DNA of 64,000 bases from Baekduia alba (GTDB lineage: Bacteria > Actinomycetota > Thermoleophilia > Solirubrobacterales > Solirubrobacteraceae). Below, piece by piece: positions 38,059-42,372 of this stretch. The position numbers were made by a program, and so were the translations under genes. Where the stretch lies: NCBI RefSeq assembly GCF_028416635.1, contig NZ_CP114013.1, forward strand, positions 2,418,001 to 2,482,000. Direction: 5' to 3'. Each line of letters opens with the position of its first letter. Within the stretch, counting starts at the first letter, position 1. The notes beneath the pieces are model-generated. The model was not told the DNA's origin and did no database searches. It worked only from the letters and a program-made list of their open reading frames with translations.

Positions 38059-38310
38059 ATGACCCGCGAAGACGTCTTCACCCTGATCCGGAACCACCTC
38101 GCCGACGAGCTCGACGTCGATGGGACGCGGATCGACGAGTCGACGCGCTTCAAGGAGGATCTGGACGCCGACTCGCTGGATCTGTACACGCTGGTGCAGG
38201 AGCTCGAAGACTCCTACGGCGTGAAGATGTCGGACGAGCAGGCGGCGCAGATCCTCTCCGTGGGCCAGGCGGTCGACTTCGTCCTCGCCCACGCGCCCAG
38301 CGCCACGTAG
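38059..38310 (+). CDS. acpP: Acyl carrier protein
   Basis: 83 residues. Four-helix ACP with the phosphopantetheine serine in DLDADSLDLYTLVQELE. It carries the growing acyl chain in fatty acid synthesis. It follows plsX by 8 bases, with a GGGGA ribosome-binding-like sequence before the ATG. Confidence 0.97.
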   Translation: MTREDVFTLIRNHLADELDVDGTRIDESTRFKEDLDADSLDLYTLVQELEDSYGVKMSDEQAAQILSVGQAVDFVLAHAPSAT

Positions 38311-38325
38311 CCGTGAGCCACTAGC

Positions 38326-39006
38326 TTGCAGAAGCTGCGAGACCTCCTCGGCGAGGTGCCCGAGGATCTGGCTCGCCAGGTCTTCACCCACGCGTCCTGG
38401 ACGGCGCGGCGGTCGGACTCCTACGCGCGCCTCGCGTTCCTGGGCGACAGCGTGCTGGGCCTGGCGATCACCGCGCACATCTACCCGTTGCTGGAGGCCG
38501 AGCGCTACGGCGCCGGCCGGCTGACGAAGATCCGGGCCCAGACGGTGTCCGGGCCGTCGTGCCGCAACGTGGCCGAGCGCCTCGGCGTGCCGGAGCGGCT
38601 GCGGGCCGCGGCGCCCGAGGGCGCCGAGCAGACGACGGCGCTGATGGAGACCGAGCGCGTCCTCGCGTCGATCATCGAGGCGGTCATCGGCGCGTGCTTC
38701 CTGCACGCGGGCTACGAGCGCACGGCGGCCGCGGTCGTCGAGGCCTTCGAGCCCGAGCTCGAGCACGCGCTGGAGCATCCCGTCGACTACAAGTCGACGC
38801 TGCAGGAGCGGCTGGCCCAGCGCGGCGAGGTCGTGGTCTACGAGGTCACCGCCGAGAACGGCCCGCCGCACGACCGCACCTTCGAGGTCGCCGCCGGCGT
38901 GTCCGGCGCGGTCCTCGGAACCGGGTCGGGCCGGTCCAAGAAGCACGCCGAGCAAGAGGCCGCGCGCGTAGCGCTCGAAGGTCTCGAAGCCGACGACGCC
39001 GCCTAA
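38326..39006 (+). CDS. rnc: Ribonuclease III with altered catalytic motif
   Basis: 226 residues from TTG. Full RNase III layout: N-terminal nuclease domain (FTHASW, RLAFLGDSVLGL, RLTKIRAQTV, VLASIIEAVIGACFL) and C-terminal double-stranded-RNA-binding domain (DYKSTLQERLAQRG, GSGRSKKHAEQEAARVAL). The signature normally reads ERLEFLGD, and here both glutamates are alanine. The usual ADxxEA is ASIIEA, Asp to Ser. The motif Asp (GD) and the Glu of IIEA remain. Whether it cleaves or only binds RNA is open. Position before smc is the normal one. Confidence 0.9.
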   Translation: MQKLRDLLGEVPEDLARQVFTHASWTARRSDSYARLAFLGDSVLGLAITAHIYPLLEAERYGAGRLTKIRAQTVSGPSCRNVAERLGVPERLRAAAPEGAEQTTALMETERVLASIIEAVIGACFLHAGYERTAAAVVEAFEPELEHALEHPVDYKSTLQERLAQRGEVVVYEVTAENGPPHDRTFEVAAGVSGAVLGTGSGRSKKHAEQEAARVALEGLEADDAA

Positions 39007-39075
39007 GGCTCCCCAAAACTCCCTGCACCCTCCGGTTCGGGCACGAACGTCCGGGGCACCCGCAAGGATGTGGGG

Positions 39076-42000
39076 GTGCATCTGAAGTCGCTGACCCTGA
39101 AGGGCTTCAAGTCCTTCCCCGACCGCACCAAGCTCGAGTTCGGGCCTGGCGTGTCGGTGATCGTCGGCCCGAACGGGTCCGGCAAGTCCAACATCACCGA
39201 CGCCGTGCTGTGGGCGATGGGCGAGCAGTCGCCGCTCGCGGTGCGCGGCCAGTCGATGCAGGACGTCATCTTCGGCGGCGGCCGCGGCGTGCAGGCGCGC
39301 TCGTCGGCCGAGGTCGAGCTGGTGCTGGACAACTCCGACGGCACGGTCGACCTCCCGGTGGGCGAGATCTCGATCCTGCGCCGGCTCGACCGCTCCGGCG
39401 ACGGCGAGTACCGCCTCAACGGCGCGAAGTGCCGGATGGTCGACGTGCTCGAGGTCCTGAGCGACACGGGCCTGGGCAAGGAATCGCATTCCGTCGTGTC
39501 CCAGGGCCGCGTCGAGGCGATCGTCACGTCCAAGCCCAAGGACCGCCGGCTGCTGATCGAGGAGGCCGCCGGCCTGGGCAAGCACCGCAAGCGCCGGCGC
39601 CGCGCGCAGCTCAAGCTGGAGCGCACGCAGGACAACCTGGATCGCGCGCTGGACGTCGAGCGCGAGGCGCGGTCGCGGCTGCGCCCCCTCAAGCGCCAGG
39701 CCGAGGCCGCCGAGCTGCACGAGCGGCTGGAGCGCCAGACGGTCGAGGCGCGCTGGGAGCTCGCGCGCGAGACCGTGCGCGCGCGCCGCGCCGAGATGGC
39801 CGAGGCGGTCGCGAAGGTCACGTCGTCGCGCGCCGAGCGCGAGGAGGCCCAGTCCGAGCTGCGCGCGGTCGCGGCGCGCCGTCAGCTCGCCGAAGAGGCG
39901 CTGGCCAAGCGCTCGGAGCAGCGCGAGGCGCTGGCCCGGCGCGTCGAGCGGGCGCGGTCGGCCGCCGACCGGATCGAGCTGCGCCTGGAGCGCACGCGCG
40001 AGACGGCCGAGCAGGTCGCCGAGCGGGCCGAGTCGCGCGAGCGCCAGCTCGGCGCGCTGCAGCTGCAGGCCGCCGAGGACCAGCCGGACGAGAACGGCCT
40101 GGAGCGCATCGAGTCGATCGAGGCTCAGCTCGTCGAGCTGGACTCCGACCGGACCGCCGCGCTGGAGCGCGAGCTGCAGGCCCTGGAGGCGCAGCGGTCC
40201 GCGGCGGCCGCGCGCGTCGAGGAGCTGAAGACGGCGGTCGAGGCCAAGCGCGCGGCGCTGGCCGAGGCCGACCAGGCCTGCGAGGTCGCGCGCCAGGCGC
40301 GGCGTGCGGCGGAGGCGTCGGCCGAAGGCGCCCGGCGCGAGGCCGCGAAGGTCGGCGCCGAGCTGGCGCGGGCCAACCAGTTCCTGCGCTCCCATTCCGG
40401 ACCCGCCGGCAGCGCGCGGTCGCTGAGCGACGACCTCGAGGTCGAGGCGGGCGCCGAGCTGGCGCTGAGCGCCGCGCTCGGCGCGCGGCTGAGCGCCGCG
40501 GTCGTCGCGGACCGCGCGGCCGGCGCCGCGCTGCTGGACAAGGCCAAGCGCGACGGCGGCCGCGCGCTCGTCTCCGGCGACGCTCCCGCGGGCGCTCCGG
40601 TCGCGCAGCCGACGCCGCCCGTCCCCGGCGCGCGGCCCTTCGTCGACCTCGTCCGCGGTCCCGAGCCGGCGCTGTCGCTGGCCAGGCGGCTGCTCGCCGA
40701 CGCGTGGCTGGTCGAGTCGCTCGACGCGATTCCGGACACCTTCACCGGCGTCGCCGTCACGCCCGCGGGCCGCGCCTGGCTCGGCGCCACGCGCGAGCTC
40801 CAGCAGGCCGCCGAGGGTGGGGCGGAGCGCGTCCTGGCGATGCGCAACCAGCGCGACGCGCTGATCGCCGAGGCCGACAAGCACGTCAAGGCGGAGCACG
40901 AGGCGTCGACCGGCGTCGAGGCCGCGACGGGCGCCGTCTCCGCCGCCGACGCGTCGCGCGACGTCGCCGAGCGCGAGCGGCGCGACGCCGAGCGCGCCTA
41001 CGCGGAGGCCAAGGAGTCCGAGCGCCAGGCCGCGTGGCTGATGGAGGAGCGCCGCAAGGCGCCCGAGCAGGGCGAGGCCGCGGTGCGGCGCGCGCAGCTC
41101 GAGGGCGAGCTGACGTCCGAGCGCCGCGTGGCCGAGCAGGCCGCGAAGGCGCGCGAGGAGCGTACGCGGCGCATCGCCTACCTCGAGGCGCAGCTCAAGC
41201 GCGACCGCGAGCTCGGGCCCGCGGCCGGCCGCGTCGCCGACGTCCTGGCGGTCGTCCACGAGGCGGTCATGGGGCGGATGCGCGAGATGGAGGGCGCGCT
41301 GGCCGCCGATCGCGCCGAGGGCGAGGGCGTCGCCCAGGAGCTGCGCGCGTGCGCCGCGGCCGAGGCCGAGATCCAGCAGAAGCTCGGCGAGCGCAACGAG
41401 GCCGTGACCCGCGCCGAGGTCCGCGCGCAGCAGCTGCGCGACCAGGAGGCCGAGGCCGCGCACGAGCTCGCCGAGCTGGCCGAGAAGCTCGGCCTCGAAG
41501 CGGAGCCGCGCGAGGAGCCGCTGTCGACCGAGGAGGCGATGCAGCTGCGCCAGCGCGTCGAGCGCCTCGTCAAGCGCCGCGAGCAGCTCGGCCCGGTCAA
41601 CCCGCTGGCCAAGCAGGAGTACGACGAGGCCGTCGTGCACGTCGACGAGCTGGAGCGCCAGCGCACCGACCTGGAGACCGCGCTGCGCGAGCTGCGCGCG
41701 TTCATCCGCGACACCGACCGCCAGATCCGCACCACGTTCACCGAGACGTTCGAGGCCGCGGCCAAGAACTTCGAGGAGCTGTCGCAGACGCTGTTCCCGG
41801 GCGGCGGCGGGCGCCTGACGCTCGTTCGCGAGGACAACGGTCCGCGCCCCGTGCTCGGCGGGGCCAAGGCCGACGGCGACGCCGGCGACGGCGCGTCCGA
41901 GGTCGAGGCCGAGGCGGCCGCCGAGGCCGCGGCCGACGCCGAGGCCGCCGCGGACGAGCACGGGATCGACCCCGACGACGACCTCGGCGTCGAGATCGAG

Positions 42001-42372
42001 ATCACGCCTGCGGGCAAGTCGATGAAGCGCCTGACGCTGCTGTCCGGCGGCGAGAAGACGATGACCGCGATCGCCTTCCTGTTCAGCGTCTTCCTCGCCA
42101 AGCCGTGCCCGTTCTACATCCTGGACGAGGTCGAGGCCGCGCTCGACGACCTCAACATCACGCGCTACCTCGACCTGCTCCAGGCGCACGCCGACCGCGC
42201 GCAGTTCATCGTCGTCACCCACCAGAAGCGGACGATGGAGGCGGCCGACACGCTCTACGGCGTGTCGATGGGCAACGACGGCGTCTCGAAGATCGTGTCG
42301 CGCAAGATGCCCAAGGAGTACGTCGCCGACGCCGAAGAGGCGCACGGCGAGCCCGTCGGCGCCGGCGCGTAG
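39076..42372 (+). CDS. smc: Chromosome segregation protein SMC
   Basis: 1098 residues from GTG of VHLKSLTLKGFKSF; a GTG two codons earlier is possible. Walker A GPNGSGKSN is near 31-39, followed by long coiled coils. A hinge domain (about 440-570, LGARLSAAVVADRAAGAALL, ALSLARRLLADAWLVES) is in the middle. The C-terminal ATPase has the signature LLSGGEKTMTA and Walker B FYILDEVEAALDD. An Ala/Glu/Asp-rich insert (about 930-975) precedes the signature. It is slightly shorter than typical SMC (about 1150-1200). It organises and separates the chromosome with ScpAB. Confidence 0.97.
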   Translation: MHLKSLTLKGFKSFPDRTKLEFGPGVSVIVGPNGSGKSNITDAVLWAMGEQSPLAVRGQSMQDVIFGGGRGVQARSSAEVELVLDNSDGTVDLPVGEISILRRLDRSGDGEYRLNGAKCRMVDVLEVLSDTGLGKESHSVVSQGRVEAIVTSKPKDRRLLIEEAAGLGKHRKRRRRAQLKLERTQDNLDRALDVEREARSRLRPLKRQAEAAELHERLERQTVEARWELARETVRARRAEMAEAVAKVTSSRAEREEAQSELRAVAARRQLAEEALAKRSEQREALARRVERARSAADRIELRLERTRETAEQVAERAESRERQLGALQLQAAEDQPDENGLERIESIEAQLVELDSDRTAALERELQALEAQRSAAAARVEELKTAVEAKRAALAEADQACEVARQARRAAEASAEGARREAAKVGAELARANQFLRSHSGPAGSARSLSDDLEVEAGAELALSAALGARLSAAVVADRAAGAALLDKAKRDGGRALVSGDAPAGAPVAQPTPPVPGARPFVDLVRGPEPALSLARRLLADAWLVESLDAIPDTFTGVAVTPAGRAWLGATRELQQAAEGGAERVLAMRNQRDALIAEADKHVKAEHEASTGVEAATGAVSAADASRDVAERERRDAERAYAEAKESERQAAWLMEERRKAPEQGEAAVRRAQLEGELTSERRVAEQAAKAREERTRRIAYLEAQLKRDRELGPAAGRVADVLAVVHEAVMGRMREMEGALAADRAEGEGVAQELRACAAAEAEIQQKLGERNEAVTRAEVRAQQLRDQEAEAAHELAELAEKLGLEAEPREEPLSTEEAMQLRQRVERLVKRREQLGPVNPLAKQEYDEAVVHVDELERQRTDLETALRELRAFIRDTDRQIRTTFTETFEAAAKNFEELSQTLFPGGGGRLTLVREDNGPRPVLGGAKADGDAGDGASEVEAEAAAEAAADAEAAADEHGIDPDDDLGVEIEITPAGKSMKRLTLLSGGEKTMTAIAFLFSVFLAKPCPFYILDEVEAALDDLNITRYLDLLQAHADRAQFIVVTHQKRTMEAADTLYGVSMGNDGVSKIVSRKMPKEYVADAEEAHGEPVGAGA

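What the first reader, a model, noticed from the sequence alone, without database searches (positions are those of the whole stretch)
38326..39006. RNase III lacking conserved acidic catalytic residues
The signature ERLEFLGD reads ARLAFLGD, and the ADxxEA motif reads ASxxEA. In the family, the Glu of RLEF and the Asp of ADxxE help bind the catalytic metals. Two of the four acidic ligands are therefore missing, although the dsRNA-binding domain is intact. It may be a binding-only protein or use altered metal coordination. Gene order before smc argues that it is the only canonical rnc.
Basis: partly seen in the sequence, partly recalled or inferred. Interest (0 to 1): 0.6.

Follow-up and report, generated by a model that had tools for sequence, protein, structure and literature searches.

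The report
RNase III with stripped-down active site
The only RNase III of a whole order of soil bacteria (Solirubrobacterales) has lost most of the conserved acidic residues around its active site but kept the two that matter most, the same minimal set as in the working enzyme Mini-III, so it is probably a trimmed-down dsRNA-cutting enzyme rather than a dead one.

Summary
ORF 38326-39006 encodes a full RNase III (nuclease domain plus dsRBD). D45 and E117 are kept. It is not a sequencing error. A41 is present in 56/56 sampled order members and E65 is lost in nearly all. Outside the order, 69/69 class and 49/49 other phylum sequences keep E41 and E65, and E41A maps as a single event on the tree. 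D114 loss is older and commonplace in the class. The gene is the only RNase III-domain gene in this genome and in the order genomes searched, and it sits before smc.

'Binding-only' is not favoured. D45 and E117, the two residues whose loss kills E. coli RNase III, are invariant. Long pre-16S and pre-23S stalks, the standard RNase III substrates, are present, and the 16S stalk covaries across the order. Mini-III, an active dsRNase, natively has Ala at 41 and Thr at 114, and its D45 and E117 equivalents are its known catalytic residues. I conclude: most likely an active RNase III with a Mini-III-like minimal metal site, reached convergently. New variant of a known kind. Activity is inferred, not shown.

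The parts
38326..39006 (+). rnc, RNase III, 226 aa, TTG start, TAA stop
   Evidence: only RNase III-domain gene in the genome
38362..38742 (+). RNase III nuclease domain (residues 13-139)
   Evidence: PF14622 match; AF2 model pLDDT 90, Z 18.8 to M. tuberculosis RNase III 2a11
38425..38427 (+). Ala34 = E. coli E38 position; E/T/A/S/V in the family, G in some others of the order
38434..38436 (+). Ala37 = E. coli E41 position (MgA ligand lost); Ala in 56/56 order members, Glu in 69/69 class and 49/49 other phylum sequences
38446..38448 (+). Asp41 = E. coli D45 (MgB ligand), invariant
38512..38514 (+). Ala63 = E. coli E65 position; acid lost in the order only
38668..38670 (+). Ser115 = E. coli D114 position; S in most of the order, A/N in much of the class
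38677..38679 (+). Glu118 = E. coli E117 (bridges both metals), invariant
38788..38982 (+). dsRNA-binding domain (residues 155-219), GPPH and SKKHAEQ motifs intact
   Evidence: PF00035 5.2e-15
38059..38310 (+). acyl carrier protein gene upstream (context)
   Evidence: read from the translation
39070..42372 (+). smc downstream (context; rnc-smc order seen in 61 of 64 order loci)

Best explanation
This is the orthologous, sole RNase III of a Solirubrobacterales bacterium. Its nuclease domain was remodelled in the ancestor of the order by loss of E41 and E65, on top of an older and labile loss of D114 in the class. It most likely still cleaves dsRNA, including the pre-16S and pre-23S rRNA stalks. 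D45 would hold MgB and E117 would bridge MgA and MgB; MgA, deprived of E41, would be held by E117, the scissile phosphate and water. This is the residue set that Mini-III has. Shown here: the residues, their distribution, the single gene, the stalks, and the match to Mini-III. Inferred: that it is active, how the metals are held, and that it processes the stalks. A further inference is that losing these acids lowers electrostatic repulsion of dsRNA and raises the need for metal.
For: (1) D45 and E117 are conserved without exception in 56 order, 69 class and 49 phylum sequences, while E41 and E65 go from 100% to about 0 in the order. In E. coli, D45A and E117K/A/Q lose activity but still bind RNA (table in PMC8708148), so binding alone would not explain keeping both. 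(2) E41A, E65A, E38A and D114A single mutants of E. coli retain weak activity in excess magnesium. (3) Mini-III from three bacteria (PDB 4oun/6tnn, 1u61, 2gsl) reads LA(Y/F)(I/M/L)GD and STAFEA/ATALEA, that is Ala at 41 and Thr at 114 with D45 and E117 kept. B. subtilis Mini-III cleaves dsRNA in 1 mM MgCl2 (PMC4357697), and E106Q, the E117 equivalent, inactivates it completely (PMC5141509). (4) It is the only RNase III-domain gene in this genome; searches of 60 relatives show one such gene wherever one was found. (5) The genome keeps pre-16S and pre-23S stalks far stronger than shuffles: -65.1 vs best shuffle -54.3 and -68.7 vs -42.7 kcal/mol. A 24-pair part of the 16S stalk has 6 pairs changed on both sides, 99.6% of cells paired, and 0/500 shuffles reaching its covariation score. 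(6) E41A maps as a single change. (7) The model is confident and fits RNase III structures.
Against: No activity data were found for any enzyme of this order. E41A, D114A and E65A each weaken E. coli RNase III and are scored 'low' for binding; no test of the combination was found. Mini-III depends on ribosomal protein L3 for efficient cleavage of pre-rRNA, so the minimal site may be intrinsically weak. No acidic residue gained throughout the order that could replace E41 was found. Stalk conservation could reflect ribosome assembly or other nucleases.
Confidence: 0.72

Rival explanations
1. Catalytically dead RNase III kept as a dsRNA-binding or ribosome-assembly factor, in the manner of the mitoribosomal protein mL44 or the trypanosome KREPB proteins.
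For: E41, E65, E38 and D114 are gone together; the dsRBD is intact; mitoribosome chains of the RNase III fold appear among the structural matches of the model; each single mutation is damaging in E. coli.
Against: D45 and E117 are invariant over strongly diverged sequences. In the non-catalytic KREPB domains the metal residues are degenerate and the dimer glycine is kept (PMC5770545). Mini-III shows that the two acids can suffice. There is no second RNase III to take over.
Confidence: 0.17
2. Active enzyme with a substitute metal ligand (a residue of the partner subunit, S114, or E109) or a preference for Mn2+ over Mg2+.
For: Ser at 114 is common in the order and E109 (E. coli numbering) is acidic in 80% of the order against 10-24% outside. 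Mn2+ restores some E. coli and C. jejuni active-site mutants and makes Mini-III cleave more extensively.
Against: Neither E109 nor S114 is universal in the order; Mini-III works in Mg2+.
Confidence: 0.1
3. Sequencing or assembly error at the motif.
For: None found.
Against: The same residue occurs in 56 sequences from genomes of four families and in 64 loci from named records.
Confidence: 0.01

Closest known systems
Class 1 bacterial RNase III (E. coli Rnc, M. tuberculosis RNase III; TIGR02191)
   Same: Domain order RIIID + dsRBD, fold (Z 18.8 to 2a11, 17.6 to 7r97), D45, E117 and G44 kept.
   Different: E38, E41, E65 and D114 all replaced in this protein; scores under the TIGR02191 cut-off.
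Mini-III (MrnC; PDB 4oun, 6tnn, 1u61, 2gsl)
   Same: Active site residue set: Ala at 41, Ser/Thr at 114, no acid at 38 or 65, D45 and E117 kept; the 2gsl protein (F. nucleatum) even reads LAFLGD.
   Different: Mini-III has no dsRBD and is a separate subfamily; the window protein falls within Thermoleophilia RNase III on the tree, so the likeness is convergent.
Engineered E. coli EEQ 'bacterial Dicer' (E38A/E65A/Q165A; PMC9291653)
   Same: The window protein naturally has Ala at 38, 65 and 165.
   Different: EEQ keeps E41 and D114. Ala at 165 is common in RNase III outside the order (57 of 69 class sequences), so the match at 165 is weak evidence.
Non-catalytic RNase III domains (trypanosome KREPB4-10; mitoribosomal mL44)
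   Same: RNase III fold with catalytic acids lost.
   Different: KREPB domains have degenerate metal residues; here the two essential acids are invariant.

Membership tests
Class 1 bacterial RNase III | RNase III domain followed by a dsRNA-binding domain | tested here: met
   PF14622, PF00636 and PF00035 over cut-off; fold confirmed
Class 1 bacterial RNase III | Orthology: nests within RNase III of its class, rnc next to smc, single gene | tested here: met
Class 1 bacterial RNase III | Signature ERLEFLGD with E38 and E41 | tested here: not met
   ARLAFLGD
Class 1 bacterial RNase III | Catalytic D45 and E117 | tested here: met
Class 1 bacterial RNase III | D114 of the ADxxEA motif | tested here: not met
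   Ser here; already A/N in much of the class
Class 1 bacterial RNase III | Score over the curated NCBIfam equivalog cut-off (TIGR02191) | tested here: not met
   152.3 bits against 166.25
Class 1 bacterial RNase III | Cleaves dsRNA with divalent metal | not testable with these tools
   needs the purified protein
Mini-III | Ala at 41, Thr/Ser at 114, D45 and E117 kept | tested here: met
Mini-III | No dsRBD | tested here: not met
   dsRBD present; therefore not a Mini-III, though its active site may work like one
Non-catalytic RNase III domain (KREPB type) | Metal-binding residues degenerate, dimer glycine kept | tested here: not met
   D45 and E117 invariant in 56 sequences; comparison

The most novel reading that the evidence does not exclude
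A whole order of Actinomycetota runs its only class 1 RNase III on an MgA site with a single protein ligand. If it also behaves like E. coli E38A/E65A, it may release ~22 bp duplexes from long dsRNA by cooperative inside-out cutting, a natural counterpart of the engineered bacterial Dicer.
Probability: 0.12. Interest if true: 0.65.

Novelty: new variant of a known kind. Interest (0 to 1): 0.42.

Why it matters
RNase III is described with four conserved catalytic acids and is the model for two-metal RNA cleavage. A whole order that replaced half of them in its only RNase III, and converged on the Mini-III residue set, is a natural experiment on which ligands the reaction needs. It also warns against calling an RNase III dead because E41 or D114 is missing.

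Tried and rejected
Sequencing error: rejected by 56 plus 64 orthologues. A second RNase III or Mini-III in the genome: none found with PF14622, or with PF00636 up to E = 1. RLAFLGD in RNase III outside the order: a pattern search of 396 phylum genomes found 12 genomes with hits outside the order, none of which reads as RNase III. An acidic residue gained order-wide to replace E41: none; the best, residue 56, lies in an insertion confined to the family, and E109 is not universal. Whole-flank duplex folding for the 16S stalk with a 200-base trailer gave no signal because the 3' arm lies further into the spacer; the windowed search found it. A windowed search over 21 loci timed out, and local alignment of whole flanks was uninformative; a first motif script found nothing because of a wrong pattern; motif-anchored arms worked. 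Selecting arms by their conserved ends biases the end pairs towards pairing, so only the inner pairs count as covariation. The Oerum 2020 Mini-III ribosome paper is not held. No paper on RNase III of Thermoleophilia was found.

Full report
WHAT IS THERE. Window 38326-39006 (+) encodes a 226-residue RNase III with a TTG start. Pfam finds the nuclease domain (PF14622, 1e-20) and a dsRBD (PF00035, 5e-15). The protein scores 152.3 bits on TIGR02191, below its cut-off of 166.25. In E. coli numbering it has E38A, E41A, E65A and D114S and keeps G44, D45 and E117. The AlphaFold2 model has mean pLDDT 90. It matches M. tuberculosis RNase III (2a11, Z 18.8, rmsd 2.3 over 141 residues), E. coli 7r97 (Z 17.6, rmsd 5.1 over 213) and A. 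aeolicus 2nug (Z 17.4, rmsd 4.9 over 207).

WHERE IT OCCURS. The window lies in a 5.86 Mb single-contig genome. The nearest named relative is a Conexibacter sp. MAG (92% identical over the segment), and the close named hits are mostly Solirubrobacterales. I aligned RNase III from 56 order members in four families, 69 from other families of the class, and 49 usable from the rest of the phylum. Position 41 is Ala in 56/56 of the order and Glu in 69/69 and 49/49 outside it. Position 65 is acidic in 2% of the order and 100% outside. Position 114 is mostly Ser in the order, but Ala in most members of three other families of the class, Asn in one, and Asp in two; it is Asp in 41 and Asn in 8 of the phylum set. 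D45 and E117 are invariant in all three sets wherever the position is covered. On a tree of 144 sequences E41 changes once, E65 (acid or not) four times, and D114 (D or not) seven times. All 64 order loci from named records also read RLAFLGD, and 61 of them have an smc start just downstream. A pattern scan of 396 phylum genomes found no RNase III with RLAFLGD outside the order.

ONLY ONE RNASE III. PF14622 and PF00636 each find a single place in this genome, the latter even at E up to 1. Among 60 relatives, those with a match have one gene; one incomplete genome (G008) shows it in two adjacent pieces, probably a frameshift in the assembly.

SUBSTRATES. The rRNA operon (16S, 23S, 5S) is at G000:C1 2634095 onward. 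The 16S leader and the spacer form a stalk of -65.1 kcal/mol (best of shuffles -54.3). The 23S flanks form one of -68.7 (best of shuffles -42.7). The 16S stalk was recovered in 16 order loci. Over ten distinct versions of a 24-pair part, 99.6% of cells pair, 6 pairs change on both sides, and 0 of 500 shuffles reach the covariation score (0.229 against a mean of 0.102). The arms were picked by conserved end motifs, so the end pairs are not independent evidence. The stalks show that the usual RNase III substrate is maintained. They do not show which nuclease cuts it.

WHAT THE MISSING RESIDUES DO ELSEWHERE. In the E. coli post-cleavage complex MgA is held by E41 and E117, MgB by D45 and E117, and D114 touches no metal; E38 and E65 line the ends of the catalytic valley (PMC9291653). 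In E. coli, E38A, E41A, E65A and D114A are weakly active in excess magnesium, D45A is low in vitro and inactive in vivo, and E117K/A/Q is inactive while still binding RNA (PMC8708148). So the order has given up the less essential acids and kept the essential two.

THE MINI-III PARALLEL. Mini-III sequences from PDB entries 4oun, 6tnn, 1u61 and 2gsl align without a gap at the signature: LALAYIGD, LALAYMGD and LELAFLGD against the window's ARLAFLGD, so position 41 is Ala. At the second motif STAFEA/ATALEA against ASIIEA puts Thr at 114; this part rests on a low-scoring profile alignment with one gap nearby. The acids at 38 and 65 are absent too. B. subtilis Mini-III cleaves dsRNA in 1 mM MgCl2 (PMC4357697), and E106Q, the E117 equivalent, inactivates it completely (PMC5141509). 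The deposited chains carry E106Q (4oun) and D23N (6tnn), the E117 and D45 equivalents. An RNase III domain without E41 and D114 is therefore not dead by default. Because the window protein has a dsRBD and nests inside Thermoleophilia RNase III, the likeness is convergent, not membership.

VERDICT. The best reading is an active enzyme with a minimal metal site (0.72). A dead binder is possible (0.17), but in RNase III domains known to be non-catalytic the metal residues are degenerate, whereas here D45 and E117 never vary. The presence of Ala at 38, 65 and 165, the three sites changed in the engineered EcEEQ 'bacterial Dicer', allows a more speculative reading: stronger dsRNA binding and ~22 bp products. 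Everything about activity, metals and products is inference.

Noticed in passing
class-wide survey, loci L059-L128: D114 of RNase III is replaced by Ala or Asn in four other Thermoleophilia families that keep E41 and E65, so D114 is not a reliable mark of an active RNase III.
   Followed up: yes
L192-L197 (phylum family f22): A different lineage of the phylum has an RNase III with a shortened stretch before the second motif (IESSVMNDSVIADTVEAIIGA) and Gly aligned at position 38, and matches PF14622 only weakly; the acids at 41, 45, 65, 114 and 117 are kept.
   Followed up: partly
L157 879-903 and 2908-2946; leader and spacer of L129, L212-L229: The pre-16S and pre-23S stalks share a TTGAAAACT / GTTTTGA element with a G-G mismatch at the same place; the mismatch becomes G-C in L226 and L227. 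It may mark the processing site.
   Followed up: partly
G112, G138 (class search): Two class genomes listed as 93% and 90% complete gave no PF14622 match; RNase III may be missing or in an assembly gap.
   Followed up: no
38326: The rnc start codon is TTG; the ORF list gives it as the first ATG/GTG/TTG after the preceding stop.
   Followed up: no
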